Source: a virus. From it: a stretch of DNA of 26,195 nt. Numbering within the stretch: the first letter of the stretch is position 1; each line of letters begins with the position of its first letter. The notes under the pieces were generated by a model. The model was not told the DNA's origin. It made no database searches and saw nothing but the letters and a program-made list of their open reading frames with translations. The DNA lies in IMG/VR virus record IMGVR_UViG_3300025880_000090, positions 1 through 26,195 of that record; one strand, written 5' to 3'. The position numbers and the translations under genes were made by a program. Below are positions 1,564-16,316 of this stretch, piece by piece.

Positions 1564-4233
1564 TTATGCTGGGAAAGTTGCTCCAGTTGGTAATACATTA
1601 AAATCTAACATAATAAATTCAGCTGTTCTAGTTGGTTGTAAGAAAATTTGTCCTACTAACTCATTTCTATCTATTACATCTGGTGTATTATTACTTTCAT
1701 CCATTACTACTTTAAAAGCATATAATCCTTGTCTTTGTTGTACACTTTCTAAATATGGGTTAACTTGAGTTAAGAAATTTTGTCTAGTTGCGATTGTATT
1801 AGCTTCAAATACTAAATTATCTGCAATTTGAGAAATATATTCTTTAAGTGTAATTAATAATCTACGTACATTTACTCTATCTAATGCAGAAGCAGCTTTT
1901 TGTAATGTTTTCTGTCCAAATACTACTACTCCTTGTTGTGGGAATGTAGCAATTGGGTTAACATTTGCTTCATATAAAGTATCTCTATTAGTAGATGTTA
2001 ATTTTCTTTCAGCTCTAACAACTTGTCCCATTCCACCTCTAGTAATACCCGCTGGTGCAAACCATGGATCACTTGAAGCATCTGTAAACGCATATACTCC
2101 TGGTATAAACGTAGAAGCCGGTATGTAAACTAATTGACCAGAATTTGGATCAACTGTTTGTAACCATGGCCAATAGGTAGCTGTATAGCTATTATCAATA
2201 CCTCCCGCTTGGTTTGTTACTGTAGCAATTGGTTGGTTATATCTTACTAGATCAATTACCGCAATATTATCACCTCGGGTGATTGAATTATTTATTAAAG
2301 TAGTAATTTGACCCGCATGGTCTTGATTAGTTAAACCAGGTACTGATATTACATTATACTGATAATCATCTTGACTAGCTAATAAAGCAATTGCATTATT
2401 ATAATCAGACCCTATTAATCCTTGAGTATCGATATTATTAATATCTTGATAAAAATTAGCTGCTCTTGCTACAGGAATATTTCTACCAACAGCTCCATCA
2501 AATGAACCTGATCCTATAATAGGTAAAGAGGCTGTGAATTCAGATTTTGCAGTTCCATCATTATTAAAGTAATTTGGTGTTGGAGTATTTACTTGTCTTA
2601 CTCTAACATAATTAGAAATTTGTGCAAATGAACCTGATTCTTGTAAAAAGGTATCTACTCCTTCTGTTACTAGATTAGTAGATATATCACCAATTGCTCT
2701 TGAGATATAATTTGGAGAAAATGGATCTAATGAAATATTATTATATGTTTCTAATACTACTTTATTATTAGTATTATCATTACCACGTCTAATTGCTAAT
2801 GAAAATACTCCTGAAGAAGTGTTAACACTTGTAATTTCCCATCTTACGTTAAGAGATGAACCACTAGTTAAAGCTCCACCTGCTATTTCAACACCACTTG
2901 TATCAGACCCAGCAGGGTATGTATTATTCATAATTTCACCTTCAGAAATTGTTTCTAATACAAAAGCTGTTTGGTTTTCAATCATTGCATCGGTTAATAC
3001 AAAAACTGGATTTGTTGAAAATACACCAGCTGTTCCACTTGCAATACTTACTTCATCCTCATTTGCATAACCTAACCCATCTTCTGTAACTACAACGCCT
3101 GAAATCTCAGTTAAGATTTGAGGTTGAGTAATTTGAAATATGAGAGCATCTCCACTTGTAGCACCTAAGCTTGTAGCAGGGATAGAAATTTGATCTCCAA
3201 CTTTATACCCTGATCCTAAAGTAGTATTACCTGCATCTAATGTAATATTACCTGCAGTAATTGTTCCTGCTAAATTAGCATTCTGGATAGAAAATGTTGC
3301 GGCACCACCTGCAGCACCTGCTCCCAAAGGAGCTCCTGCTAAAGCATTAATACCTGCGGCCGTAACATTAATAACTGAGGTATTTGTGTAACTAGATCCT
3401 CCAGATACCAGTGTAATTTTTGTAATTTCACCCGCACCATCACTAGTTACTGTTACTACACCTCCAGATCCACCACCTGAAACACTACCTCCATTTGAGA
3501 TTAAATCAGATACATTAATATTTGTGGTTGTTATAGAAGGGGTAACACCTGTAATTGTAGTACCACCAGCTGTTACTTCAGCTCCGGCTAAAAATGAATC
3601 TCCTGTACTAACTACAATATCCCATAATGCACCTATTCCATCTCCACCAGTACCTGATATGTCATTATAATTATCAGCTACCATATTTGAACCTGATTGT
3701 ACAATTATAGATGTAAAAGGAGTACCCGTAAATAAAATACCATTACTATTACTAGTTGTTACTGTTACTTCAGCACCCGATCCATTTCCTGAATCAGTTA
3801 CTAATGGAACACCTGTGTATGTTCCAGGGGCTGATGAACCACTACCACCACCTGTTGAAGTTTTATATCCACTAAAGATATTTCCAATTAACCCACCGGT
3901 TGGAGATTCTAAATTATTTTGAATGGTTGTAGAAGTAGCTGAGTTAAAAGATCCCGAAGTTACTCTTGTTACTAAAAGTGAAGTTCCACCATTTTGAAAA
4001 TATTGGTTTGCTGCGATAGAAGTAAGATATGTGTACTCATTAGAACCACTTAATAGAGCCCCACCAAATAATGCTTGGTATGAACTAAATGAACTAATTA
4101 GAGTTGGTCTTTCTACAGGACCAATTACAGTAGGTCCTATAATTGCCGCACCTCTTTCAATGGGTTGTGAAGTAACAAAAGATTGATCGTTTTCTCTTGC
4201 TAATACACCTGGGGAGATTAATGTTTCTGCCAT
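1564..4233 (-). CDS. 18: Tail sheath protein, T4 gp18-like, with large beta-rich insertion
   Basis: This 889-residue protein is the contractile sheath subunit. Residues 1-100 (ISPGVLARENDQSF, AAIIGPTVIGPVERPTLI, FQNGGTSLLVTRV) and 490-889 (FVLETYNNISLDPFSPNYIS-like region, RGDNIAVIDLVRYN, WFAPAGITRGGM, LYEANVNPIATFPQQGVVVFGQKTL, DRVNVRRLLITLKEYI, EFIMLDFNVLP) are typical of gp18-family sheath proteins. T4 gp18 has 659 residues. The excess is a Gly/Ser/Thr-rich insertion at about residues 115-420 with repeated 'GSGY..GD.I.I'-type strands, probably beta domains displayed on the outside of the sheath, roughly where T4 gp18 has its protruding domains. It lies between a small coiled-coil gene and gp19 and has its own promoter-like motif. 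Confidence 0.92.
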   Translation of the reverse strand: MAETLISPGVLARENDQSFVTSQPIERGAAIIGPTVIGPVERPTLISSFSSYQALFGGALLSGSNEYTYLTSIAANQYFQNGGTSLLVTRVTSGSFNSATSTTIQNNLESPTGGLIGNIFSGYKTSTGGGSGSSAPGTYTGVPLVTDSGNGSGAEVTVTTSNSNGILFTGTPFTSIIVQSGSNMVADNYNDISGTGGDGIGALWDIVVSTGDSFLAGAEVTAGGTTITGVTPSITTTNINVSDLISNGGSVSGGGSGGVVTVTSDGAGEITKITLVSGGSSYTNTSVINVTAAGINALAGAPLGAGAAGGAATFSIQNANLAGTITAGNITLDAGNTTLGSGYKVGDQISIPATSLGATSGDALIFQITQPQILTEISGVVVTEDGLGYANEDEVSIASGTAGVFSTNPVFVLTDAMIENQTAFVLETISEGEIMNNTYPAGSDTSGVEIAGGALTSGSSLNVRWEITSVNTSSGVFSLAIRRGNDNTNNKVVLETYNNISLDPFSPNYISRAIGDISTNLVTEGVDTFLQESGSFAQISNYVRVRQVNTPTPNYFNNDGTAKSEFTASLPIIGSGSFDGAVGRNIPVARAANFYQDINNIDTQGLIGSDYNNAIALLASQDDYQYNVISVPGLTNQDHAGQITTLINNSITRGDNIAVIDLVRYNQPIATVTNQAGGIDNSYTATYWPWLQTVDPNSGQLVYIPASTFIPGVYAFTDASSDPWFAPAGITRGGMGQVVRAERKLTSTNRDTLYEANVNPIATFPQQGVVVFGQKTLQKAASALDRVNVRRLLITLKEYISQIADNLVFEANTIATRQNFLTQVNPYLESVQQRQGLYAFKVVMDESNNTPDVIDRNELVGQIFLQPTRTAEFIMLDFNVLPTGATFPA

Positions 4234-4290: not shown

Positions 4291-4545
4291 CTATTTTGTT
4301 AAAGTAAATTCCCCAGTTTCTAGATCAATATTTCCTTCACCATACTTATCCTGGAGTTCTTTAGCTGTTTTATTAGATTTTTCTTGTAAATTAGCTAACC
4401 CATCTAGAATTTGGCTTCTTTGACCTTCTAATATTGCTTTTTGGATATCAACATTACCTAAATTAAAAGTAATTTGATTTTGTTCTTGTTGATAACCTCT
4501 AAGAACTTTTAGTTCTTCTTCTGATAACTTAATTGTTTTACTCAT
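4291..4545 (-). CDS. Small coiled-coil protein, paralogue of the 85-residue gene product at 9092-9349
   Basis: The 84-residue product is rich in Glu, Gln, Lys and Leu, with a heptad-like helical middle, and ends in LQDKYGEGNIDLETGEF. That C-terminal KYG-G-(I/V)DL signature and an N-terminal KL(S/T)EEE motif are shared with the product of 9092-9349, so the two are probably paralogues flanking the glycosyltransferase genes. Small coiled-coil proteins of this size in T4 include the fibre chaperone gp57A, but I see no sequence match and only note the analogy. It lies between the 293-residue glycosyltransferase and the sheath gene, and has its own promoter-like motif 13 bases upstream. Function unknown. 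Confidence 0.75.
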   Translation of the reverse strand: MSKTIKLSEEELKVLRGYQQEQNQITFNLGNVDIQKAILEGQRSQILDGLANLQEKSNKTAKELQDKYGEGNIDLETGEFTLTK

Positions 4546-4606: not shown

Positions 4607-5488
4607 TTATTCTAACCAATCATCTATTTGTTCTATAACCATATTTGGGGTTATTGAAGTATGACATTCAAATTGGCGTGGTGTATCTTTATGTTTGGGA
4701 CACCAATACCAATCTCCAAAATCAAAGTTATGCTCAATTCCTACCTTGTTAAAACACCCATGGCATACTGATTTATTGATAATTCGTTTATAATTAGGGA
4801 AATCTAAAGGAATTTCATGCCAGTCTTCTGTAAAATTAGATATCATTACTACTTTTTTTTCTAGAGCATGAGCTAACCAAGTTAAACCCGAGGATAGCCC
4901 TATAAAAAATTCAGCGTGTTGTATATAATTAACAGTGTCTTCTAAAGATACTTGTGTTTTGTTATTAGATTTTTTTGGTAACCCATTCCAATAAGGAGGA
5001 CAACCAAATAATTCATCACGTTCTACTACTACAGGGGTAAAACCTTTTTTTCTTAATATTCTACATAACTCAGTCCAATAAGGAGGAGTACCCTGTACAC
5101 TTTTCCCTTTAGGATGATTCCAATATTTTAATTGTGAAGTAGAATGTACACTTATAACAACATATTTTCCTTTTATAGGACGTTTTTTAGGGGTAATATT
5201 TAATTTAGGTTGAATGTAATTCCATTTTTTATAACCTAAATCTAAAGCAAACCCTTCTTGAATATTAGTTTTAAAATTATAATCTACTGGAATTATTTCC
5301 TCAAATCCTTCTGTTGTATTTACTAATTTTAAATTTGGATAAGACTCTTTAAATAAAAATTGAAACTTAGGATTTACCTTAACATAAACATCACAATTTT
5401 GATCTAACCTATATTGATTTATATAGGGAATAGCTATGATTGTATCCCCTAAGGAATTTGATAATATATTAACTAAAACTTTTCTCAT
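4607..5488 (-). CDS. Autotransporter-heptosyltransferase-like (Aah/TibC type) GT-B glycosyltransferase
   Basis: The 293-residue protein has a GT9/ADP-heptose transferase-like layout. The N-terminal LVNILSNSLGDTIIAIPYIN resembles the 'GDTIAWxPxV' segment of Aah/TibC enzymes. Middle strands include GKYVVISVHSTSQLKYWNHP, and the nucleotide-sugar site region is FFIGLSSGLTWLAHALEKKV. Near the C-terminus four cysteines (C242, C245, C263, C275; C-x2-C-x17-C-x11-C) surround FDFGDWYWCP. From the literature, TibC/Aah enzymes carry such a Cys quartet binding iron and transfer heptose to serines of autotransporter adhesins. The start codon overlaps the stop of the 757-residue gene (ATGA), implying coupled translation. 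Unlike its partner it lacks the N-terminal beta domain of the family. The donor sugar and target are unknown; phage fibres are the inferred target. Confidence 0.75.
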   Translation of the reverse strand: MRKVLVNILSNSLGDTIIAIPYINQYRLDQNCDVYVKVNPKFQFLFKESYPNLKLVNTTEGFEEIIPVDYNFKTNIQEGFALDLGYKKWNYIQPKLNITPKKRPIKGKYVVISVHSTSQLKYWNHPKGKSVQGTPPYWTELCRILRKKGFTPVVVERDELFGCPPYWNGLPKKSNNKTQVSLEDTVNYIQHAEFFIGLSSGLTWLAHALEKKVVMISNFTEDWHEIPLDFPNYKRIINKSVCHGCFNKVGIEHNFDFGDWYWCPKHKDTPRQFECHTSITPNMVIEQIDDWLE

Positions 5489-7758
5489 ATATTACTTGAA
5501 TTGAATACTTGAGTAGGGGTAATAGATTTTTGACAAATATGCTGTTTATTTGTTCCTTTCCAAATAGGACACCAATCCCAATCCCCAGGATCAAATGTAA
5601 AATTAGGATTAGTCCAACAAGGAATACATGCATTATCATTCATTACACGAGTAATATGAGAAGTAAATTCATGATCTCTTTCACTAAACCCATTAATCAT
5701 AATTGTATGTTTTTTTAAAGCCCAATTTAACCACGATAAACCTGATCCTAGCCCAATAAATTTATCAGCATAAGTTAAATAAGTAGCTACTACATCTAAT
5801 GGTCTACCTTGAATATTAGTTGTACCTGGGATAGTATAAGGGGTTGAGGAAAGTATAACTACTTGGTAATTTTTATTTTTAAACATTTTGGATAATTCAA
5901 CCCAATTATCATAAGTCCATTCCTTACACCCCGAAGTTGATTGAGGACCAAATACTACATATTTTCCTTGAATAGGTTTTTCACCAATGTTAAAATTAAC
6001 CCCATAATTAAGTTCTTTATATTCTAACCCTAAAATATCAGTTGATGTTTGTATCAAAGGAATTGTATTTGGTTGGGTTGGGTGATCATCAAAATTTTTA
6101 AAATTACCATCTGAATTTTTAAACCATCCTATTTTATATTGAGCATAAGCAGAACAAGATTCTCCGGGTTTAATAAATTTAATATTTTTATATTCTGGAA
6201 GGTTTTTAAACCAATTATTATGAAAGGTACTAACTATAACTTTACATTGATGTTTTTTAGCAAATTCTATAACTTGGGGGGTCCATGCTATTGTATCACC
6301 AATTGATTTTGAATCTAAAGTTATTTTTACGTTTTTATCTTTAAGGTCTAATTTATGAATTACTTTACCATTTAATTTAATAACCCAAGGAATAAAATAA
6401 GATTTATTACATTTAGTCCACATATTATTAGTAATAACAGAAGAATGAACTATTTTATTTGTTTCCCCATTTATAAATTCTACTTTATACTTTTCAAAAT
6501 TAGACCCTTTGATTTCTATTTTAGGACCTTCATTAAAACTAATTTCAATGTTATTAGGAGGTATATTATTTACTAAATAGTCTATTTCTTTTTTAGCTAT
6601 TTGAGCAGCATTTTCCCAAGTAAACTTTTTTCTTATTTCAACCGATTCTTTTATTGCTTGTTTTTTATGTTGTTTATAATTAACATAAGCATCCCTCATT
6701 ACCCTTTTTAAATCATTAAAATCAGGTGAATAAAATTCCCCAGGTAAGTCAGATTGAGAGAATGTACTATATTCTCCCCCTATAGCAGGAATAGTTCCTT
6801 TAATTTTTACGGGCAATCCTTTACCTTCTGCAAATTCTAATTGAGCACTACAATTTGAATAAATAGAAGGGGTACCACAAGCCATTGCCTCAATTAAAGG
6901 TAAATTCCATCCCTCAGCACGAGCACAAGATAAAAATACATGACCTTTTTGTAAGTACTTAATATATTCTTCTCTTGTTGGAAAATGTTTTATTTTTAAT
7001 CTTGGATCAATTAAACCATAATGTTTAAGTCTTTCTTCAGTAGATTCAAAGTCATCCTTAGCCATATGGTTGTCTATAGATAATATTAAATCTACAGGTT
7101 CATCTTTATCAAATTCTTCTAAAAAAGACTCAATAACCTCTTTAGTAGATTTTCTATAATCCCACCGACCAAACATTGTAAATTTAAATCTTCCATCGTC
7201 ATATTCCGGAAGTGTAGCCTTTTTATTAGGGTGAAAAATAGTAGAATCTACTGCTTCAGGAACAACCTTTACTTTATCTGAAGGAATTCCTTGTTCAATA
7301 GTACAGTCTCTTTGCCATTTAGAAGCAACCCAAACTTGATCAAATGTAGATAATTGATTAAAAAATGTTTTAGGTTGACGAGTTGTTTCCCATACATTAT
7401 AGGCTATTTTTGGGCCTTGATAATCTTGATAAAACACATGGTGGTTTGTTTCACACAAAACTAGATTGACATTATGATCAAAATCGTTAGGATATTTAGT
7501 ATAAATATCTTTATGAATTAAATTATTATCTTCCCACAAATATTGTGAAGTAAGTAGTTTTTTATCTAACCCATCAAAGTATTCTTCTCCATTATGGGGT
7601 TCATCTTTATAACCATCCCATGATTTACCTACTGTAAAATTTCTTATTTTTAAGTTATAAAGATTAGAAAGTTCTCTATAAAATGCTCTTGTATGATTAG
7701 CATAACCTGTAGTTCCTACATAACTACCATGTGCAAATATTTTAGGTGTTTTTATCAT
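5485..7758 (-). CDS. Bifunctional glycosyltransferase: GT4 domain fused to Aah/TibC-type O-glycosyltransferase domain
   Basis: The 757-residue protein has two complete-looking enzymes. Residues 1-395 are a GT4-type retaining GT-B transferase: FTMFGRWDYRKSTKEVIESF, then SCARAEGWNLPLIEAMACGTP with the E-x7-E pair E282/E290. Residues 403-757 match the autotransporter heptosyltransferase architecture: a beta domain with VEFINGETNKIVHSSVITNN and a following MWTK, then SIGDTIAWTPQVIEFAKKH (about 485-503), CKVIVSTFHNNWF, a PLIQTSTDILGLEY segment, IGLGSGLSWLNWAL, and the Cys quartet C711, C714, C730, C742 around FDPGDWDWCP. Known relatives (Aah, TibC) O-glycosylate serine repeats in the cytoplasm with ADP-heptose. 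One polypeptide could therefore attach the first sugar and extend it; that coupling is inference. It is followed at once by the 293-residue paralogue (4-base overlap). Confidence 0.82.
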   Translation of the reverse strand: MIKTPKIFAHGSYVGTTGYANHTRAFYRELSNLYNLKIRNFTVGKSWDGYKDEPHNGEEYFDGLDKKLLTSQYLWEDNNLIHKDIYTKYPNDFDHNVNLVLCETNHHVFYQDYQGPKIAYNVWETTRQPKTFFNQLSTFDQVWVASKWQRDCTIEQGIPSDKVKVVPEAVDSTIFHPNKKATLPEYDDGRFKFTMFGRWDYRKSTKEVIESFLEEFDKDEPVDLILSIDNHMAKDDFESTEERLKHYGLIDPRLKIKHFPTREEYIKYLQKGHVFLSCARAEGWNLPLIEAMACGTPSIYSNCSAQLEFAEGKGLPVKIKGTIPAIGGEYSTFSQSDLPGEFYSPDFNDLKRVMRDAYVNYKQHKKQAIKESVEIRKKFTWENAAQIAKKEIDYLVNNIPPNNIEISFNEGPKIEIKGSNFEKYKVEFINGETNKIVHSSVITNNMWTKCNKSYFIPWVIKLNGKVIHKLDLKDKNVKITLDSKSIGDTIAWTPQVIEFAKKHQCKVIVSTFHNNWFKNLPEYKNIKFIKPGESCSAYAQYKIGWFKNSDGNFKNFDDHPTQPNTIPLIQTSTDILGLEYKELNYGVNFNIGEKPIQGKYVVFGPQSTSGCKEWTYDNWVELSKMFKNKNYQVVILSSTPYTIPGTTNIQGRPLDVVATYLTYADKFIGLGSGLSWLNWALKKHTIMINGFSERDHEFTSHITRVMNDNACIPCWTNPNFTFDPGDWDWCPIWKGTNKQHICQKSITPTQVFNSSNI

Positions 7759-7809: not shown

Positions 7810-8682
7810 TTAATTATTAAGTGATGTTATAATTTTATTTACATCAAATACTTCATTTAAATTATTGTAAGGTATAGAGTGGATATCTTGTGCTAAATTA
7901 AAAGGTTGGTAAACAGAATTTTGAATTTGGGGTTTTTTTGTAAAGAGATTAGCTTGAATATTATCATGTAATTTATACCCAAACACTGTTGGTTTAGTAG
8001 TTACCCAACATACAGTAGATTTCACATTCATGGCTGCTGCTAAATGTTGAGAAAATGAATCTATTAATAAACGTTTAGAAGACATTTGAAGTAAAATAGC
8101 AATACTTCTAAAACCATCTAAAGCTTGCATTGTGTCAGGATAGGTATATTGGTCTTTTCTTTTAATATGAATAATTGCATAATCATTTTTATAATGATCA
8201 ATAACATTTAATACAGTAGGTTCTGGTATATCTCTTGTCCATGAATATTGAAAACCTTGACCTTGAGGTCCTCCATTTGTTTGTATGGCTAAAATAGGTT
8301 TATCTAATTTATAAAAAGGGGAAAAATAATCTAGCTCGGGTTGTGTTAAATAGATTTTAGGTTGTTCATTATTATAATGTAACCCATAAATTTTACACCA
8401 AGTTTTAAATAAATGTTCTTTTTCTGTTAAAAATGAAGTGTGACGGTAGGGGTCTTCAATAAAAAGTTTGCAATCTTGATCCTTAATGTATTTAAGATAA
8501 GCCCCATTCATTTGTTCAGGTCTATATATTTTACTAACCTGGGGGTTATTTAAAAATACATCAGGGTAAGCAGTTACAACTATTAAATTAGAATTTTTAT
8601 ATCGTTTCTTTATAACCTGTACCATGGCTGTTGCCATAATAGATTTACCTAAACCCCCATCTATCTGGAATATTATGTTCAT
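7810..8682 (-). CDS. GT9/heptosyltransferase-like GT-B protein
   Basis: The 290-residue protein begins FQIDGGLGKSIMATAMVQVI, the Gly-rich loop and helix seen at the start of GT9 (ADP-heptose:LPS heptosyltransferase) proteins, followed by LIVVTAYPDVFLNNPQVSKI. The C-terminal half has ILAIQTNGG, DYAIIHIKRKDQ and RLLIDSFSQHLAAAMNVKST, corresponding to the GT9 'D(T/S)..mHlA.a....v.l' donor-binding region. It lacks the Cys quartet of the two Aah/TibC-like proteins downstream. Its role is probably to add a sugar to a nascent glycan, or it may be a substrate-handling homologue; which one cannot be read from sequence. It lies 40 bases after a small DUF-type gene and 52 bases before the GT4 fusion. 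Confidence 0.65.
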   Translation of the reverse strand: MNIIFQIDGGLGKSIMATAMVQVIKKRYKNSNLIVVTAYPDVFLNNPQVSKIYRPEQMNGAYLKYIKDQDCKLFIEDPYRHTSFLTEKEHLFKTWCKIYGLHYNNEQPKIYLTQPELDYFSPFYKLDKPILAIQTNGGPQGQGFQYSWTRDIPEPTVLNVIDHYKNDYAIIHIKRKDQYTYPDTMQALDGFRSIAILLQMSSKRLLIDSFSQHLAAAMNVKSTVCWVTTKPTVFGYKLHDNIQANLFTKKPQIQNSVYQPFNLAQDIHSIPYNNLNEVFDVNKIITSLNN

Positions 8683-8721: not shown

Positions 8722-9033
8722 TTACCAAGGAACACCATCATCCGTGGTTTTACTTTGTTCATAATTAATTTGTTCTGCAACCGAAGATGAATTAGATGTT
8801 TCTATAGCTAAATAATCTATGCTTCCTGTTACCCAAGTAAGCACTATTTCTTCTGTTAAATCATCATAAGATACAAAATCTGGGTCTGAAGGGGATTTAG
8901 ATGGGAGAGAGTAATCTCCTACCATTCTTTTCATAGATCCAGAGTATGTAGTATTACAAGTATAAGAAGCTGTTGTAACTAAACCATCGCTTAAATTTCT
9001 TTCTAAATTAGTTATTGACCAAGTATGTTGCAT
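8722..9033 (-). CDS. Conserved small phage protein of the type seen in marine cyanophages
   Basis: The 103-residue product starts HTWSITNLERNLSDGLVTTA and ends with a Ser-rich helix followed by DDGVPW. From memory, a family of about 100-residue proteins in marine T4-like phages opens with 'W.I.nLER....G.V..a.w' and ends 'G(L/V)PW'; I recognise it as that family but its function is undescribed. The middle segment FVSYDDLTEEIVLTWV is also typical. Such genes usually sit among structural or fibre genes, suggesting a small virion or assembly protein. It has its own promoter-like motif 17 bases upstream, which separates it from the glycosyltransferase genes on each side. Confidence 0.75.
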   Translation of the reverse strand: MQHTWSITNLERNLSDGLVTTASYTCNTTYSGSMKRMVGDYSLPSKSPSDPDFVSYDDLTEEIVLTWVTGSIDYLAIETSNSSSVAEQINYEQSKTTDDGVPW

Positions 9034-9350: not shown

Positions 9351-10580
9351 TTATATTTTTGTATTTAATAAGTTTTTTAATTTAGAACTATCTAATGTAG
9401 CCACTAAATTTATATCATTTTTACTATTTCTATAAGCATAAATTTTATATTCACTTTTATCACTAATATAAGAATATATTTCTTGGAAAGTAAGTAATAT
9501 ATTAAACTCATGTTTAATTTTAAAATCTAAGGAATATTTATTTACTGTATCAACTATACTTTTTTTTACTAATTTAATATTACTAAAGTTTGTTAGTGTT
9601 TTTAATTTATTTTTATGGTTTGGTTTAATTAGTTCAGTAAATACCGTTATAATAATATAATCGTATCCTGATATTAATTTTGGGTAATTTATATAAGGGT
9701 TAAAATTTATAAAAAGAATTTTTTTAGGTTTACCAGAATTTTTAATTTTTTCTAAATATTCTTCTGATAACCCAACTGGGTCTCCTTTATCATCTAAATG
9801 TTTACAAACTATAGAGGGTACTATACTTATTTTTTTTCCTAATAGTCTTATTCTATAACATATTTTAGAATCTGGGGGAGCGTCAGTATCAAAATAATCT
9901 CGATTTTCAGTTAAAGGGAGAATTTGTTTTGCATCATTTACTGAAAGTAGCATGCATCCATTTCCTACAAATCCTATATCTGTATAATCTGTGTAAGTTA
10001 AATCGTCTATAGAGGTTTCTATCCATTTATCTTTTCTTACACTTGCTACTATACGTCTTTTGGTTTCAGGTTTTTCTGTAACTATAGTAGGTCCTAACCA
10101 TTCTTTATTAAAATAAATCCCGCTTGCTATGCCACAATTTTCTATTTTATAGTAGGTATTAAAAAGATCTTCTAAAGCAAAATAAGGCGGTATAGTATCA
10201 TCATCTACAAAATGTATAAAATCTCCATCTTTAACTGATTGTAATCCTATATTGATATTTTGTAAAGCAGAATCATGTTTAACAAGCGTGTCTTTTTTGC
10301 GGGTATATTGTTCCCATTCTTCCCAATTTAAATCAGGGTGACACCTTCTATTACCTTCTATGAAACTTATTTTATTGTATTTGTCAGATAGTTTTAATTC
10401 TTTAATTTTACTTTTGAGTTGTTTTGTAAAATTACTATCACATCCTAAAACTAGATTTAAATTAAGCTGGTTTATTTGGTTAGGGGTAGTTAAATTACAG
10501 AAGTAATCTAAAAGTTTATCTATAGAAAATTCTCTTCCTATAATAATAGATACAATAGTACAACTAACTTTATTTTTCAT
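9351..10580 (-). CDS. GT-A fold glycosyltransferase with DDD motif and an extra C-terminal domain
   Basis: The 409-residue protein opens with CTIVSIIIGREFSIDKLLDY, typical of a GT2-like transferase, and has a metal-binding DxD-type motif in DGDFIHFVDDDTIPP (D126-D128). The acceptor-side residues follow in TDIGFVGNGCMLL and DYFDTDAPPDSKICYRIRLL, and the catalytic region closes with KHLDDKG. This is an inverting GT-A architecture for adding a sugar to a protein or glycan. Residues from about 285 to 409 form a separate, very Lys/Asn/Ile-rich domain starting KPKKILFINFNPYIN that I do not recognise. It is the first glycosyltransferase of the island in transcription order and precedes the small coiled-coil gene by one base. 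Donor and acceptor are unknown. Confidence 0.72.
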   Translation of the reverse strand: MKNKVSCTIVSIIIGREFSIDKLLDYFCNLTTPNQINQLNLNLVLGCDSNFTKQLKSKIKELKLSDKYNKISFIEGNRRCHPDLNWEEWEQYTRKKDTLVKHDSALQNINIGLQSVKDGDFIHFVDDDTIPPYFALEDLFNTYYKIENCGIASGIYFNKEWLGPTIVTEKPETKRRIVASVRKDKWIETSIDDLTYTDYTDIGFVGNGCMLLSVNDAKQILPLTENRDYFDTDAPPDSKICYRIRLLGKKISIVPSIVCKHLDDKGDPVGLSEEYLEKIKNSGKPKKILFINFNPYINYPKLISGYDYIIITVFTELIKPNHKNKLKTLTNFSNIKLVKKSIVDTVNKYSLDFKIKHEFNILLTFQEIYSYISDKSEYKIYAYRNSKNDINLVATLDSSKLKNLLNTKI

Positions 10581-10633: not shown

Positions 10634-11320
10634 TTAAGATATTCCGGTTACTTTACCAACGTTTGCTGTAGCTACTCCTGTTATTTCTCCTATGTTAGCA
10701 GATACTACCCCTGTTACGGTATTTCCATATCCAGTTACTGCAGTATAAGTTAAGGTTGGCTTTAAAGTTAAAGAGTTAAGGTGGTATTGTAGCGGTATTT
10801 GAAATCCTGATGAAGGTTGAGAATTAGAATAGTCGTAAGTATGGTCTATTACTGCTAAAATTAATTCAGAATTGGTATTAGCATCCGATATCGCAGTACT
10901 ATTTAATGCTATAGTATTTTGAGCATCTCCAGTGTTACTAAAGGTGGTGAACTCAGCTGAGTAAGCAGTGCTTAAATCTGCAGCTCCAAAGTCACCAACT
11001 GCAATATTAGAACCATCAGGTGCAGTAGATTTTACAATAATAATATCTCTGGTTGCGGAAGGGGATTTTGTATATAAATCTAAGTCTAAATCTGTAATTG
11101 TTCCGCTAACTGAGGAAAGGTCAAAATGTAAATAACCTCTTCTAATCCTAAATGTATTACCTCTTGATCCAACATATTCAGCATTAATTAGAGCACCCGA
11201 TTGATATACAAAAGCAGTTGTTGCCGTAGATGCATTCCTTGTATCGCTCCAAGTATATATAGTAGAATCTAAAGATATAAAAAGTTCTCCTGATGTATTT
11301 TCTGGGGTTACTGATGGCAT
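10634..11320 (-). CDS. Fibre-type virion protein with beta-sandwich domain and ANxGxxTG C-terminal repeats
   Basis: The 228-residue protein contains a beta-rich domain (about 30-195) with FRIRRGYLHFDLSSV followed by TDLDLDLYTKS and a long C-terminal strand segment SLTLKPTLTYT. This resembles the DNRLRE-like or carbohydrate-binding-like jelly rolls found in secreted and phage fibre proteins; the assignment is by pattern only. The last 30 residues are a short repeat, TGVVSANIGEITGVATANVG then KVTGIS. From memory, similar (V/I)xGVxxANIxKVxG repeats are common in phage fibre and adhesin proteins. It follows the methyltransferase gene by four bases and is likely part of the same receptor-binding apparatus. 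Confidence 0.6.
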   Translation of the reverse strand: MPSVTPENTSGELFISLDSTIYTWSDTRNASTATTAFVYQSGALINAEYVGSRGNTFRIRRGYLHFDLSSVSGTITDLDLDLYTKSPSATRDIIIVKSTAPDGSNIAVGDFGAADLSTAYSAEFTTFSNTGDAQNTIALNSTAISDANTNSELILAVIDHTYDYSNSQPSSGFQIPLQYHLNSLTLKPTLTYTAVTGYGNTVTGVVSANIGEITGVATANVGKVTGIS

Positions 11321-11324
11321 AATT

Positions 11325-11984
11325 TTACTGTCTTATATACATTGGCATGTAATACTCGTTTGTATTATGATATTCATTTTTTGGGATTTGAATTTTATAA
11401 TCACTCAATCTGATTAATTCATAGCTAACTCCCCTTCTATTTTTAGTAGTTTCGTCTGGAGTGAAATTTTCCATTGGATTCCACCAAGTCATTCTACCTC
11501 CTACCTTTAAAAATTTAGTAATGTAGTTTTTAAATTCGTGTAACTTTGTATCTTGATAAGTATCTATAAAAATAGCATCAAATTCCTGTAAACCTGATTT
11601 TTCAAAAGATTTTCTAAATTCATCAAACCAGTTCTTACCTCCTAAGATAGTAACTCTATTTTTAAGTCTATTTTTATCATAATATGTATTACGCTCTCCG
11701 GCCCAAGCATTTGCTCTTTCAGTAATAGCTAGGTGTGTTTCTATAATTGTATGCTGTACCGGTTGATAGTTTTGTATAAATCCGGCTGATATACCCATAC
11801 CAAAACCTAATTCTAACACGCTTTCTACTTTACCTCCATTAGTAACCCATTCGGCAGATCTTCTCATAATTGGGGTTTCCCAATCCATCATTACGTTAAA
11901 CTCTTTACCGTCTTTAGAGTACTTAATTTTATCACTTTCGAAAGTAAGAGATCTTTCTTTATATCCTGTATCAAATCCTGCCAT
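11325..11984 (-). CDS. Class I SAM methyltransferase resembling guanidinoacetate/arginine N-methyltransferases (GAMT/RMT2)
   Basis: The 219-residue protein has the full class I core: SAM-binding loop VLELGFGMGISAGF (about 55-69), the acidic end of the second strand TIIETH (E82), FDAIFIDTYQD (136-145) and LKVGGRMTWWNP (159-170). More telling, the segment DWETPIMRRSA (E36) before motif I and the IDTY motif (D141) match the 'RWETPYM' and 'YDTY' motifs of GAMT and fungal RMT2. In GAMT these supply the Glu and Asp that hold the guanidino group (Glu45 and Asp134 in mammals, from memory). So an N-methyltransferase acting on an arginine-like or guanidino group is plausible. It is packed 10 bases after the 891-residue fibre gene and 4 bases before another fibre gene, suggesting virion modification; that link is inferred. 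Confidence 0.78.
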   Translation of the reverse strand: MAGFDTGYKERSLTFESDKIKYSKDGKEFNVMMDWETPIMRRSAEWVTNGGKVESVLELGFGMGISAGFIQNYQPVQHTIIETHLAITERANAWAGERNTYYDKNRLKNRVTILGGKNWFDEFRKSFEKSGLQEFDAIFIDTYQDTKLHEFKNYITKFLKVGGRMTWWNPMENFTPDETTKNRRGVSYELIRLSDYKIQIPKNEYHNTNEYYMPMYIRQ

Positions 11985-11994
11985 AAAGTTATTT

Positions 11995-14670
11995 TTAAGC
12001 TATTTCTACCCAAGCTCCGTCTGGGTTAAAGTAAATTACTTCAGTAGAATCATCAATTAAATGTCCTACTACTCTTACAATATCTCCTGTACCTGAAGGA
12101 GCTCCTGTTGTAATACCTCCTGCTGTAGTTGATAAATATAGAGGTGATCCTATAGTTCCTCCTGTAAGACCGAATACTGATGTGAATCTTGCAAATCCTC
12201 TTATAAGCATACCTACAGTATTTGAAAGTCCAGTTCCTGCAGCTATTGCAAGCATATTAGTTGCTGAACTAGCAGCATCAGCATCAGCTAATGACCAACT
12301 AGATGTACCTGATACTGGTTCAAGTAAATAATAAACGTTTCCTGCTGTTACATTTGAAGAACCTACATATATTAATTCACCTGCAGTATTAGCAGTTCCT
12401 AAATATGGTGTTTGATTATTATGTGCATGGAAGGCAAAATTATTTACAAAAGTAGTACAATTTGATAAAGCTGTAATGCTGGTACCAATAATAAAGGAAC
12501 AAGCTTTACTATTTATATTATTATTATTTCCTGATATAATACCACTCATACAACCATTATTTGTGTTAGAACACCCACCACCTATAAATCCTTGGCCTGA
12601 TGAAACAGTGTTTGTGCATCCTCCTGCTATTACACCTCCAGTAGCAGAGACGGTATTTTCACCACCCCCTGCAATAACTGCTTGGGAAACTCCACTAGAA
12701 ATTGTATTATTATTTCCTCCACCAATAGGAGAGGATGTTCCTTGAGTATCATTACTAAATCCTCCTCCAACAGAACTACAAGCACCTCTAGCACAGTTAA
12801 TATAACCACCAGCTACTATACCATAGTTATTAGAAACATAATTATCACGTCCTCCACCAATATGACCATACTGTCCATAGGAACAGTTATTATACCCCCC
12901 GGCTGTTGTACTATATGTATTTGATGAATCATTAGAGTAACCACCACCAACAGTTGAATAAGAACCTCTTGCACAATTTAAACGACCTCCTCCAACAATA
13001 CCATAATCATTTTGAACAGAGTTACTACACCCACCAGCAATAGTCCCCCAACAATCATTTGTACCAATTTTATTAAAATAACCTCCTCCAATAGTACTAC
13101 AATGAGAACTAGCACAAATTTGATTTGTACTTCCACCTCCTATAAATCCTCTATTTGAGCATATTGAATTAGACTGACCACCTACAATAGTTGAATAGGT
13201 ACCATTTGATATACAGTTACTTTCACCTCCAACAATAGATGCGCAGCCACTACTATCTATGCAATTAGATGCACCCCCACCTACAGTATCAAAATTAGCT
13301 CCTTTTGCATAATTACCTTTACCTCCTACAATTACATCAAACTCTCCAAAAAGTACGTTGTTAGATCCCCCACCAATAAATTGTGCGTCATTGAAAGTAC
13401 AATTACATCTACCCCCTCCTATAAATACAGCATTTGAGTCAGTACAGTTAAAATTCTGGATACCCCCAACAATAATATTAGCACAAGCAGTAGTTAGTGT
13501 AGGTGTTATACAGTTTTGTAAACCACCTCCTATAAAGTCAAAGGCTTCTCCTCCTTTTGAGAAATTACATTTACCCCCTACTATTACACTAGTAGAAGTA
13601 AATACTTTATTTTCGCTACCCCCACCTATAAATCCCCTAATAGCACAGGATTCATTTGTAGTACCACTTACTAAACCTGCAAATTCGGCATCAACTATAT
13701 TTTCACATCCTGCACCTAGAAAACTATCAGCTGCTGATGATGTATTTAGACTACCTGCTCCAATAAAAGACCTTAAACCATTACTTTTATTACAAGTTCC
13801 ACCTGCAATTGTTGAATAACTACTTCCAACAATATGACAATTTGTACATCCTAGACAAACAGTTCTATTTTGGAAATTAGCTTTTATAGTTGCATTGGAT
13901 GGATCAACTCCAGCAAATGCCATTTCACAATTAGCTACTTGTCCTCCAATGATATAATCATTATCAGTCAGTACAGCTAATTCACCTCCAAAATAATCAT
14001 CTCCAATAATAATTTTACCAAAGTTATTATTAACACCAAAAGTTGTCTGGTCTGTACAGAAATAAGCACCTTGAGTTGATACGTTAAAATTAGAGGTTTG
14101 TGAACAAAATGTTGCAGTAGTAACTGTAACATTAGCTTCTACATTACCACCCCCTGCACCATCATAGGTAATTACACCATTATTTGTAGTTCCTGTTAAA
14201 GATAATAATCCACTTGTTCCTGAAGAACCTGATGATCCTGAAGTTCCTGATGAACCTGAAGTACCTGAAGAACCACTAGAACCTGATGAACCTGAAGTAC
14301 CTGATGAACCTGATGAACCTGAAGTACCTGATGAACCTGATGAACCTGAAGTACCTGATGAACCTGATGATCCTGAAGAACCACTAGAACCTGAAGTTCC
14401 TGATGAACCTGAAGTACCTGAAGAACCACTAGAACCTGATGAACCTGATGAACCTGAAGTACCTGATGATCCTGAAGTGCCACTTGAACCACTTGAACCT
14501 GATGATCCACTTGAACCAGAGGATGCTGCATTTTCTCTTGTACCTACTTCTCCGGCACTATTAATTACAAGTGTTGTGTTTTCAGATCCTTGGGTAGAAA
14601 GACCTGTTAATTTAAGTTCATTTAACTCAGCGTTACTTCCACTAAGTACTACTTTTTTCCAATTTGGCAT
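11995..14670 (-). CDS. Long collagen-like fibre with Cys-rich GGGxxN repeat shaft
   Basis: This 891-residue fibre has four parts. (1) Residues 1-50, MPNWKKVVLSGSNAEL through GTRENAAS, a putative virion-anchor module shared with the 372-residue fibre upstream. (2) Residues 51-155, strict Gly-X-Y tract of GSS and GTS triplets without proline. (3) About 270-740, some 25-30 imperfect repeats of 'F/IVGGG..N', probably a trimeric beta-helix or YadA-head-like shaft, unusually rich in Cys (NC, GCSN, CAN patterns). (4) C-terminal domain starting GELIYVGSSNVTAGNVYYLL and ending EVIYFNPDGAWVEIA, likely a tip or trimerisation domain. It is the first of three tightly spaced genes (fibre, methyltransferase, fibre). 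The Ser/Thr tract is a candidate target for the O-glycosyltransferases downstream. Confidence 0.85.
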   Translation of the reverse strand: MPNWKKVVLSGSNAELNELKLTGLSTQGSENTTLVINSAGEVGTRENAASSGSSGSSGSSGSSGTSGSSGTSGSSGSSGSSGSSGTSGSSGTSGSSGSSGSSGSSGTSGSSGSSGTSGSSGSSGTSGSSGSSGSSGTSGSSGTSGSSGSSGTSGLLSLTGTTNNGVITYDGAGGGNVEANVTVTTATFCSQTSNFNVSTQGAYFCTDQTTFGVNNNFGKIIIGDDYFGGELAVLTDNDYIIGGQVANCEMAFAGVDPSNATIKANFQNRTVCLGCTNCHIVGSSYSTIAGGTCNKSNGLRSFIGAGSLNTSSAADSFLGAGCENIVDAEFAGLVSGTTNESCAIRGFIGGGSENKVFTSTSVIVGGKCNFSKGGEAFDFIGGGLQNCITPTLTTACANIIVGGIQNFNCTDSNAVFIGGGRCNCTFNDAQFIGGGSNNVLFGEFDVIVGGKGNYAKGANFDTVGGGASNCIDSSGCASIVGGESNCISNGTYSTIVGGQSNSICSNRGFIGGGSTNQICASSHCSTIGGGYFNKIGTNDCWGTIAGGCSNSVQNDYGIVGGGRLNCARGSYSTVGGGYSNDSSNTYSTTAGGYNNCSYGQYGHIGGGRDNYVSNNYGIVAGGYINCARGACSSVGGGFSNDTQGTSSPIGGGNNNTISSGVSQAVIAGGGENTVSATGGVIAGGCTNTVSSGQGFIGGGCSNTNNGCMSGIISGNNNNINSKACSFIIGTSITALSNCTTFVNNFAFHAHNNQTPYLGTANTAGELIYVGSSNVTAGNVYYLLEPVSGTSSWSLADADAASSATNMLAIAAGTGLSNTVGMLIRGFARFTSVFGLTGGTIGSPLYLSTTAGGITTGAPSGTGDIVRVVGHLIDDSTEVIYFNPDGAWVEIA
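14212..14525 (-). repeat. Gly-Ser-Ser/Gly-Thr-Ser coding minisatellite in the long fibre
   Basis: This is a DNA tract of 9-base units (coding GSS or GTS triplets with TCA, TCT, ACT and GGT/GGA codons). It is repetitive enough that other reading frames stay open as shadows. Such tracts change length by slippage or recombination. A second, longer tract with the same units lies in the fibre gene upstream (15704-16166). Confidence 0.85.
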
Positions 14671-15197: not shown

Positions 15198-16316
15198 TTA
15201 CGAATAAATATAAATATCTTCGTTACTTGCTACGTATATGTTTCCTTCTTTATCATATTTGGATGGAGCATCATCTGGGTCATTGGTAGTTCCTACAACT
15301 ACTGCTGCCATAAATGCATCTGGAGTGTATGAAGATAAAGTAGCATCAAATGAGCTAGTTACACCCCATCTTCCAGTAGACAAACCATCATAAGCAAAGG
15401 CATCACCAAAATCTTGGTCAGTTTGTTGTATAACAATACCACCATCACCAACAGTTGTTGAACCTGATCCAAGTAATATAAATCTATCTTTAACTAATAA
15501 ATTTTCAGTATTTCTAAATGAAGCAGTACCATCAACAAATAAATCATTTGATATAATAACATCACCTGTTACTGTTAATAATCCAGTATTTGATTCTGAT
15601 CCACCATCACTAACAAATGTTAATCTTTGTTCAGCATTAGCACTAGTACCATCTATATCAGTCAGTATTCTATTGTTTCCTGAGTTTTGTACATTAATTA
15701 CACCACTAGTACCACTTGATCCTGATGAACCACTTGATCCTGATGAACCACTTGAACCACTAGTTCCTGATGAACCTGAAGTTCCACTTGAACCGCTTGA
15801 ACCTGATGAACCAGATGTACCTGATGATCCTGAAGAACCTGATGAACCAGATGTACCTGATGATCCTGAATTTCCTGATGTACCTGATGAACCTGAAGAA
15901 CCGCTTGATCCTGAAGAACCGCTTGATCCTGAAGTTCCTGATGAACCAGAAGTACCAGATGAACCATCATTACCTGAGGTACCGCTTGATCCTGAAGTTC
16001 CTGATGAACCAGAAGAGCCACTTGAACCTGAAGAACCAGATGTACCACTTGATCCTGAGACTCCAGACGTTCCTGAAGAACCACTTGAACCAGAAGAACC
16101 TGAAGTTCCAGATGATCCTGATGAACCACTTGAACCAGAAGAACCAGATGTACCAGAAGAACCAGAACTAGCTGCATTTTCTCTTGTACCTATAACCCCT
16201 GAAGAATCAATAACTAAGGTTGTTGTTTCTGAAGGATTTGAGCTTAAATTTGTAAGGGATAAATTTGCTAATTCAGCCGCTGACCCACTAACAATTACTT
16301 TTTTCCAATTTGCCAT
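15198..16316 (-). CDS. Collagen-like fibre protein, paralogue of the long fibre
   Basis: The 372-residue product has an N-terminal module (MANWKKVIVSGSAAEL through GTRENAAS, residues 1-50) about two-thirds identical to that of the 891-residue fibre, so both probably attach to the same virion site. Residues 51-205 are an almost pure Gly-Ser-Ser/Gly-Thr-Ser tract with rare Val, Asn-Asp and Asn interruptions. The C-terminal 165 residues (RLTFVSDGG, GDVIISNDLFVDGTASFRN, DRFILLGSGSTTVGDGGIVI, RWGVTSSFDATL) form a beta-rich domain resembling those at the tips of fibre proteins in marine myoviruses. Its Ser/Thr density makes it the best candidate substrate for the O-glycosyltransferases encoded in this island. 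It has a promoter-like motif 40 bases upstream. Confidence 0.82.
   Translation of the reverse strand: MANWKKVIVSGSAAELANLSLTNLSSNPSETTTLVIDSSGVIGTRENAASSGSSGTSGSSGSSGSSGSSGTSGSSGSSGSSGTSGVSGSSGTSGSSGSSGSSGSSGTSGSSGTSGNDGSSGTSGSSGTSGSSGSSGSSGSSGSSGTSGNSGSSGTSGSSGSSGSSGTSGSSGSSGSSGTSGSSGTSGSSGSSGSSGSSGSSGTSGVINVQNSGNNRILTDIDGTSANAEQRLTFVSDGGSESNTGLLTVTGDVIISNDLFVDGTASFRNTENLLVKDRFILLGSGSTTVGDGGIVIQQTDQDFGDAFAYDGLSTGRWGVTSSFDATLSSYTPDAFMAAVVVGTTNDPDDAPSKYDKEGNIYVASNEDIYIYS
15704..16166 (-). repeat. Gly-Ser-Ser/Gly-Thr-Ser coding minisatellite in the 372-residue fibre
   Basis: This tract of about 460 bases is made of 9-base units encoding GSS and GTS, longer than the tract in the paralogue (14212-14525). 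Together with a shared 21-base block just upstream (14525-14545 and 16171-16191 are identical), it offers a substrate for exchange between the two fibre genes. Confidence 0.85.

What the first reader, a model, noticed from the sequence alone, without database searches (positions are those of the whole stretch)
5485..7758. GT4 and autotransporter-heptosyltransferase domains fused in one 757-residue protein
The N-terminal GT4 domain (E282/E290 pair) and the complete C-terminal Aah/TibC-like module including its own beta domain are each full length. A fusion suggests sequential action: the C-terminal domain attaches the first sugar to Ser/Thr and the GT4 domain extends it. Fusion of these two families is unusual to my knowledge.
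Basis: partly seen in the sequence, partly recalled or inferred. Interest (0 to 1): 0.7.

Follow-up and report, generated by a model that had tools for sequence, protein, structure and literature searches.

The report
Phage two-enzyme protein for fibre glycosylation
A T4-like virus of bacteria carries one protein made of two complete sugar-attaching enzymes, conserved in many environmental phages and usually found near collagen-like tail fibres rich in serine and threonine, which suggests that the phage coats its own fibres with sugars.

Summary
Window 5485-7758 encodes a 757-aa chain with a complete GT4 half (2-399; EX7E E282/E290 invariant) and a complete TibC-like half (402-757; TIGR04414 221.5 bits, cut-off 200; fold match to TibC Z 35.0). 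The window is a fragment of a T4-like myovirus, not a bacterium. The fusion is not rare: all 80 IMG/VR loci fetched have it as one ORF beside the tail sheath. None of about 80 bacterial TibC-family loci has a GT4 fused to it.

Catalytic residues and iron-finger cysteines are invariant. The adenine-binding Arg286 is lost, and so are both sides of the dodecamer contact (thumb deleted, F368 to His). It is a diverged phage branch, not a canonical Aah/TibC heptosyltransferase.

Upstream genes encode Gly-(Ser/Thr)-Ser collagen-like fibres. 25 of 47 contigs with such tracts carry a TibC-like gene, against 0 of 26 random viral contigs. Loci whose tracts contain proline also carry lysyl/prolyl-hydroxylase-like enzymes. 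Best reading: a two-step protein O-glycosyltransferase that decorates the phage's own fibres. Substrate, donors and order of steps are inferred, not shown.

The parts
5485..7758 (-). GT4 + TibC-like fusion protein, 757 aa
   Evidence: stop codon overlaps the next start (ATGA)
6574..7758 (-). GT4 (GT-B) half, residues 1-395; EX7E E282/E290 and R198/K203 invariant in 48 relatives
   Evidence: (phrog_2170 E 3.5e-28)
5500..6558 (-). TibC-like half, residues 401-753: beta-barrel, GT-B core, four-cysteine iron finger (C711, C714, C730, C742); catalytic base D488, T608, K612, W676 kept; V657 in place of TibC Arg286; thumb deleted; H740 in place of TibC Phe368
4607..5488 (-). Second, shorter TibC-like protein (293 aa, no beta-barrel), coupled to the fusion by a 4-nt ATGA overlap; keeps a long thumb-like insert and Phe at the 368 position
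   Evidence: (TIGR04414 208.8 bits, over the cut-off); same tandem in L003/L207, L201, L175, L208
7810..8682 (-). Possible GT9-like glycosyltransferase, 290 aa (weak)
   Evidence: no Pfam match; low-confidence model (pLDDT 64.9) whose best match is GT9 3tov, Z 13.0; often directly upstream of the fusion in relatives
9351..10580 (-). Possible GT-A type glycosyltransferase (409 aa), by eye only (VDDDT motif)
   Evidence: sequence inspection; no Pfam match
11325..11984 (-). Possible methyltransferase (219 aa), sub-threshold
   Evidence: PF13578 E 0.027, below the cut-off
11995..14670 (-). Fibre protein, 891 aa, with a 105-residue Gly-(Ser/Thr)-Ser tract (residues 52-156); candidate substrate
15198..16316 (-). 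Fibre protein, 372 aa, with a 156-residue Gly-(Ser/Thr)-Ser tract (residues 52-207); candidate substrate
4291..4545 (-). Small conserved protein between the fusion and the sheath gene in nearly all relatives
1564..4233 (-). Tail sheath protein, syntenic marker downstream of the fusion
   Evidence: PF04984 and PF17482, phrog_23, synteny

Best explanation
The protein is a phage-encoded, two-headed protein O-glycosyltransferase that decorates the phage's own tail fibres, above all the collagen-like Gly-(Ser/Thr)-Ser shafts encoded a few genes upstream. One half (most likely the TibC-like half) puts a sugar on side-chain hydroxyls and the other adds a second sugar to it. The fused clade has dropped TibC's ring contacts, so it probably works as a monomer or as the iron-finger back-to-back dimer on long fibre shafts. 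Shown here: the fusion, the folds, the intact catalytic residues, the loss of the ADP-contact Arg and of the ring interface, synteny with the tail sheath and fibre genes, and the association with Ser/Thr collagen-like tracts. Inferred: protein substrate, its identity, both donors, order of the steps, and benefit to the virion (stability or shielding of a collagen-like rod that lacks proline).
For: Both halves are over their curated thresholds and fold-matched. D488, T608, K612, W676 and the four iron-finger cysteines are invariant in 85 distinct fused-clade copies. Position between fibre genes and the sheath gene is kept across the fetched relatives. 21 fusion loci have Ser/Thr-rich Gly-X-Y tracts in the same stretch; in several (L057, L058, L074-L078) the fibre gene is directly next to the fusion. 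Contigs of at least 30 kb chosen only for the Gly-Ser-Ser-Gly-Thr-Ser DNA pattern: 25 of 47 carry TIGR04414, against 0 of 26 random viral contigs (Fisher 1e-6). Within 33 contigs chosen only for a related capsid gene: with tract 5 have it and 3 lack it, without tract 1 has it and 24 lack it (Fisher 0.0013). The closest isolated relative, Flavobacterium phage immuto, has a homologous fibre C-terminus but no such tract in the region and no TibC-like hit. The same island changes with fibre chemistry: after clustering at 80%, loci whose tracts hold 4% proline or more have a 2-oxoglutarate hydroxylase homologue in 10 of 10 clusters, those below 4% in 0 of 20; one of these enzymes is a GT4 + collagen-galactosyltransferase-like + lysyl-hydroxylase-like protein. 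TibC is joined to at least two unrelated GT4 subfamilies in other phages.
Against: No biochemical evidence. About half of the tract-bearing contigs show no TibC-like gene (many are fragments). Phages with Pro-rich, Ser/Thr-poor tracts keep the fusion, so Ser/Thr collagen cannot be its only substrate; it may act on another virion protein or on hydroxylated residues. Standalone phage TibC-like genes occur in loci with hardly any such tract. Closely related contigs are not independent, and the 4% proline cut-off was set after seeing the data.
Confidence: 0.58

Rival explanations
1. Same substrate class, opposite order: the GT4 half starts the chain on Ser/Thr and the TibC-like half extends it.
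For: SdgB, a GT-B enzyme among the structural hits of the model, first adds GlcNAc to serines of SD repeats and SdgA adds the second (PMC8561734). Loss of Arg286 and of the thumb suggests that the TibC half changed donor, acceptor or assembly.
Against: The SdgB-like enzymes carry an inserted DUF1975 acceptor-binding domain (PMC8561734); the GT4 half here is a plain two-domain GT-B of about 395 aa. Every characterised TibC-family enzyme acts directly on protein (PMC4358343), and TibC-like copies stand alone in many phages.
Confidence: 0.2
2. It is an ordinary Aah/TibC-type heptosyltransferase using ADP-heptose, with an added GT4, acting on a host autotransporter or adhesin.
For: Over the TIGR04414 'equivalog' cut-off; same fold and catalytic residues.
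Against: Arg286, which reads the adenine, is Arg in 75 of 76 bacterial copies and in none of 85 fused copies; the thumb (17 columns in 76 of 76 bacterial copies) is cut to 8-9 in all fused copies; F368 is His in 83 of 85. Phage and bacterial copies form separate clades. The gene sits in a phage structural operon with no autotransporter.
Confidence: 0.07
3. It alters host surface glycans (LPS or capsule) during infection, for example to stop superinfection.
For: Many phage glycosyltransferases do this (general knowledge); GT4 enzymes commonly build polysaccharides.
Against: Lies inside the late structural block between fibre and sheath genes in the relatives fetched; joined to a family known for protein O-glycosylation; tied to fibre type.
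Confidence: 0.1
4. It glycosylates phage DNA or another non-fibre virion protein (sheath, tube or the conserved 84-aa neighbour).
For: The fusion is retained where fibre tracts are poor in Ser/Thr and is always next to the 84-aa gene and the sheath gene.
Against: No base-modification gene was recognised in the window; TibC-family precedent is protein; the association is with fibre tracts.
Confidence: 0.05

Closest known systems
TibC / Aah bacterial autotransporter heptosyltransferases (BAHT; TIGR04414; PDB 4rap, 4rb4; PMC4358343)
   Same: beta-barrel + GT-B core + four-cysteine iron finger; catalytic Asp, Thr, Lys and Trp kept; Z 35.0 over 342 residues
GT4 (PF00534) retaining GT-B glycosyltransferases; structurally nearest PBCV NY-2A B736L (3oy2) and MshA (3c4q)
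   Same: EX7E, Arg/Lys pair, two Rossmann domains
   Different: C-terminal TibC-like half; donor unknown
Mimivirus L230 collagen hydroxylase-glycosyltransferase and R699 (PMC9614988, PMC9546862)
   Same: virus-encoded, multi-domain, near the virus's own collagen-like proteins; sister phages of this family carry a lysyl-hydroxylase-like domain matching L230 (E 2e-22) and LH3 (E 9e-26)
   Different: in the window the tract supplies Ser/Thr hydroxyls directly, with no hydroxylase in the window; GT4-TibC pair instead of L230-type domains
SdgB/SdgA of staphylococcal SD-repeat adhesins (PMC8561734)
   Same: two consecutive GT-B transfers onto a serine-repeat protein
   Different: two separate enzymes with DUF1975 insert; here two different GT families in one chain
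Phage-encoded virion glycosylation in mycobacteriophages Che8 and Rita (reported in PMC11256854, citing Freeman et al. 2023)
   Same: phage glycosyltransferases modifying the phage's own virion proteins
   Different: capsid proteins there; fibre shafts proposed here; different enzymes

Membership tests
BAHT (Aah/TibC, TIGR04414) | Score above the curated TIGR04414 cut-off (200 bits) | tested here: met
   221.5 bits, residues 401-753
BAHT (Aah/TibC, TIGR04414) | Fold: N-terminal beta-barrel plus GT-B core | tested here: met
   model 402-757 on TibC 22-385, Z 35.0, rmsd 2.3, 342 aligned
BAHT (Aah/TibC, TIGR04414) | Catalytic Asp110 and sugar/phosphate ligands Thr226, Lys230, Trp305 | tested here: met
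   D488, T608, K612, W676; invariant in 85 distinct fused copies
BAHT (Aah/TibC, TIGR04414) | Iron-finger cysteines 339, 342, 358, 370 | tested here: met
   C711, C714, C730, C742
BAHT (Aah/TibC, TIGR04414) | Arg286 contacting the adenine of ADP-heptose | tested here: not met
   V657; Arg in 0 of 85 fused copies, in 75 of 76 bacterial copies
BAHT (Aah/TibC, TIGR04414) | Beta-hairpin thumb (Phe265/Val266) and Phe368, needed for the dodecamer | tested here: not met
   thumb columns 8-9 instead of 17 in all fused copies; H740; His in 83 of 85
BAHT (Aah/TibC, TIGR04414) | Heptose transfer to an autotransporter | not testable with these tools
   no autotransporter gene in the window; activity needs an assay
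GT4 | PF00534 above its gathering score | tested here: met
   36.7 bits, cut-off 26.4
GT4 | EX7E motif and Arg-x4-Lys phosphate clamp | tested here: met
   E282/E290, R198/K203 invariant in 48 relatives
GT4 | Retaining transfer from a nucleotide sugar | not testable with these tools
   needs an assay
SdgB/GtfA-type Ser-repeat glycosyltransferases | DUF1975 beta-rich insert in the acceptor domain | tested here: inconclusive
   no such family in the Pfam scan and no extra beta domain evident in the model's GT4 half; not searched for specifically

The most novel reading that the evidence does not exclude
Several phage lineages carry a modular collagen-fibre glycosylation island between fibre and sheath genes. 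Either the fibre encodes its own hydroxyl acceptors (Gly-Ser/Thr-Ser tracts) or the phage makes them with collagen lysyl/prolyl-hydroxylase-like enzymes, and a two-headed GT4-TibC enzyme builds the glycan in both cases: a phage counterpart of animal and mimivirus collagen modification.
Probability: 0.45. Interest if true: 0.82.

Novelty: new variant of a known kind. Interest (0 to 1): 0.64.

Why it matters
TibC-type enzymes are known as bacterial virulence-adhesin modifiers. A large, separate phage branch, with the ring interface and the ADP contact rewritten and a second glycosyltransferase attached, gives a natural test of which TibC features are needed for catalysis and which only for autotransporter recognition. 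If the fibre reading is right, glycosylation of tail fibres by phage enzymes is widespread in environmental T4-like phages, which bears on host recognition, virion stability and any attempt to express such fibres recombinantly. It also offers a simple two-domain enzyme for building disaccharides on repetitive Ser/Thr proteins.

Tried and rejected
1. Rarity of the fusion: rejected. 2. Assembly chimera or frameshift joining two genes: rejected, 80 loci share it. 3. Fusion also in bacteria: not seen in the bacterial TibC-family loci fetched; other joins seen there are MTase + TibC in a Bacteroidetes MAG (L086) and TibC + TPR in Bradyrhizobium. 4. Ser/Thr tracts as the only substrate: rejected, because Pro-rich fibre phages keep the fusion. 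5. Phage-encoded ADP-heptose supply: rfaE-II-like matches below the cut-off in 3 of 10 large records and a gmhA-like match in one, none in Mel-JY01; inconclusive. 6. Structure of 7810-8682: model too weak (pLDDT 65) for more than a GT9-like hint. 7. Active sites facing each other: not testable, no coordinates or PAE are given. 8. Scan with the lysyl-hydroxylase-like protein gave only 2 loci. 9. Literature on phage TibC or phage collagen hydroxylases: nothing found in the open library; this is no proof of absence. UniProt-derived entries named 'Glycosyltransferase Aah/TibC [uncultured Caudovirales phage]' exist, so the presence of the family in phages is already in annotation.

Full report
What is there. 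The gene lies on the minus strand at 5485-7758 and encodes 757 aa. Its stop overlaps the start of the next gene (4607-5488) by four bases, ATGA. The window is a 26-kb virus record with the structural genes of a T4-like myovirus: sheath, tube, baseplate, capsid, PhoH. Its capsid protein is 57% identical to that of Flavobacterium phage immuto and 47% to that of Microcystis phage Mel-JY01.

Two complete enzymes. The N-terminal half is GT4 (PF00534 over its cut-off; Z 34.8 to 3oy2 and 32.3 to MshA). The C-terminal half is TibC-like (TIGR04414 221.5 bits; 4rap E 1e-35; Z 35.0 over 342 residues). The AlphaFold2 model has mean pLDDT 90.4 and pTM 0.77. Almost no linker separates the halves (GT4 matches end near 399, TibC matches begin at 400-402).

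Distribution. All 80 loci fetched from IMG/VR with this protein carry the fusion as one ORF, 730-776 aa as a rule and 1016-1248 aa in 14 cases. The longer ones add C-terminal domains, e.g. a PIG-L deacetylase. The gene sits directly upstream of an 84-aa gene and the tail sheath gene in nearly all. Mel-JY01 has GT4, an inserted methyltransferase-like part, then TibC in 1226 aa, annotated only as 'methyltransferase FkbM'. None of the bacterial TibC-family loci found in 84,980 species genomes carries this GT4. In phages the TibC module also stands alone (380-382 aa), and is joined to methyltransferases or to other GT4 subfamilies. The GT4 parts of L225, L228, L231, L264 and L269 score at most about 10 bits with our GT4 profile, while Mel-type GT4s score 440-530 and all TibC parts score about 300 or more. 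GT4-TibC pairing has therefore arisen, or had its GT4 replaced, more than once.

Residues. Numbering from TibC (PMC4358343): the catalytic base D110, T226, K230, W305 and the iron-finger cysteines are kept in all 85 distinct fused-clade copies. Arg286, which contacts adenine N1 and was put forward as the reason for ADP specificity, is V, T, I, L or S. The thumb that links dimers into the ring is deleted, and its partner F368 is His in 83 of 85. Standalone phage copies have lost Arg286 too but keep F368 and a 14-residue thumb, so loss of the ring contact is special to the GT4-fused clade. In the tree, bacterial copies form one clade (100) and the fused clade another (100). The protein thus passes most of the sequence criteria of the family but fails two that carry its specific function. 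I file it as a TibC-like branch, not as an Aah/TibC heptosyltransferase.

Substrate. Upstream in the window lie two fibre proteins with 105- and 156-residue Gly-(Ser/Thr)-Ser tracts; the DNA pattern occurs 67 times against 0 in shuffles. In L057, L058 and L074-L078 such a fibre is directly next to the fusion. Contigs selected only for the tract pattern carry TIGR04414 in 25 of 47 cases; random viral contigs in 0 of 26. The random set is of mixed phage types and includes shorter contigs, so a matched set was added: among 33 contigs selected for a related capsid gene, tract and TibC go together (5/3/1/24, Fisher 0.0013). Immuto, which has a homologous fibre C-terminus, has neither the tract nor a TibC-like hit.

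Fibre chemistry and enzymes covary. Some fusion-bearing phages have Pro-rich, Ser/Thr-poor collagen-like tracts. Those loci have, in the same slot, a 2-oxoglutarate oxygenase similar to PKHD and prolyl-4-hydroxylases and usually a 776-aa GT4 + procollagen-galactosyltransferase-like (E 5e-14) + lysyl-hydroxylase-like (LH3 E 9e-26; mimivirus L230 E 2e-22) protein. After clustering at 80% identity the hydroxylases occur in 10 of 10 clusters with at least 4% proline and in 0 of 20 below it; at 95% it is 12 of 13 and 0 of 22; at 70% it is 3 of 3 and 0 of 15, with two clusters mixed. The cut-off was set after seeing the data, and relatedness is only partly removed. Still, it ties this gene island to the fibres.

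Mechanism. The most likely reading is protein O-glycosylation of the fibre shaft in the cytoplasm before assembly, with two sugars added by the two halves. TibC-family precedent favours the TibC half as initiator; SdgB/SdgA (PMC8561734) shows that GT-B enzymes of the GT4 type can initiate on serine repeats as well, so the order stays open. Virus-encoded precedents are mycobacteriophage capsid glycosylation (PMC11256854) and mimivirus collagen modification (PMC9614988, PMC9546862).

Limits. No assay, no coordinates for the active-site geometry, many contigs are fragments, and the literature search covers open-access papers only.

Noticed in passing
L038:6299-8626 (and homologues in L025-L030, L040, L041, L043, L044, L046, L048-L052, L064-L066): Phage protein joining GT4, a procollagen-galactosyltransferase-like domain and a lysyl-hydroxylase-like domain (LH3 E 9e-26), next to Pro-rich collagen-like fibres; perhaps more surprising than the finding itself.
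   Followed up: partly
L018:10001-13741 and similar 1241-1248-aa proteins: Fusion extended by a further ~480 aa that includes a PIG-L type de-N-acetylase domain (PF02585 39.1 bits), suggesting an amino-sugar in the glycan.
   Followed up: no
L083:2-3052 (Microcystis phage Mel-JY01, PP395634.1): A long plus-strand ORF with Gly-X-Y tracts runs off the record start but is annotated as opposite-strand hypothetical proteins; probably a missed fibre gene.
   Followed up: no
L032:2778-3596; L081:4469-5569: Sulfotransferase (PF00685/PF13469) and UDP-galactopyranose mutase (PF03275) genes in the same island of relatives, pointing to sulfated or galactofuranose-bearing glycans.
   Followed up: no
L301 (G007:C1:38000-54000) and L303 (G005:C1:168000-178000): Phage clusters of sugar-nucleotide genes: L301 has SIS-type isomerase-like, cytidylyltransferase-like, GDP-mannose-dehydratase-like and KDO-8-phosphate-synthase-like proteins (by eye); L303 has an adjacent kinase and nucleotidyltransferase pair resembling a split HldE.
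   Followed up: partly
window 10634-11320 (-): 228-aa protein with sub-threshold CBM96-like match (PF24517, 20.5 bits, cut-off 26) inside the island.
   Followed up: no
window 8722-9033 (-): DUF7936 protein (68.8 bits, cut-off 27) recurring just upstream of the GT9-like gene in relatives.
   Followed up: no
L086:4300-7071 (contig CAIWBA010000291.1): Bacteroidetes MAG contig whose methyltransferase + TibC protein groups with jumbo-phage copies in the tree; the contig may be a phage.
   Followed up: no
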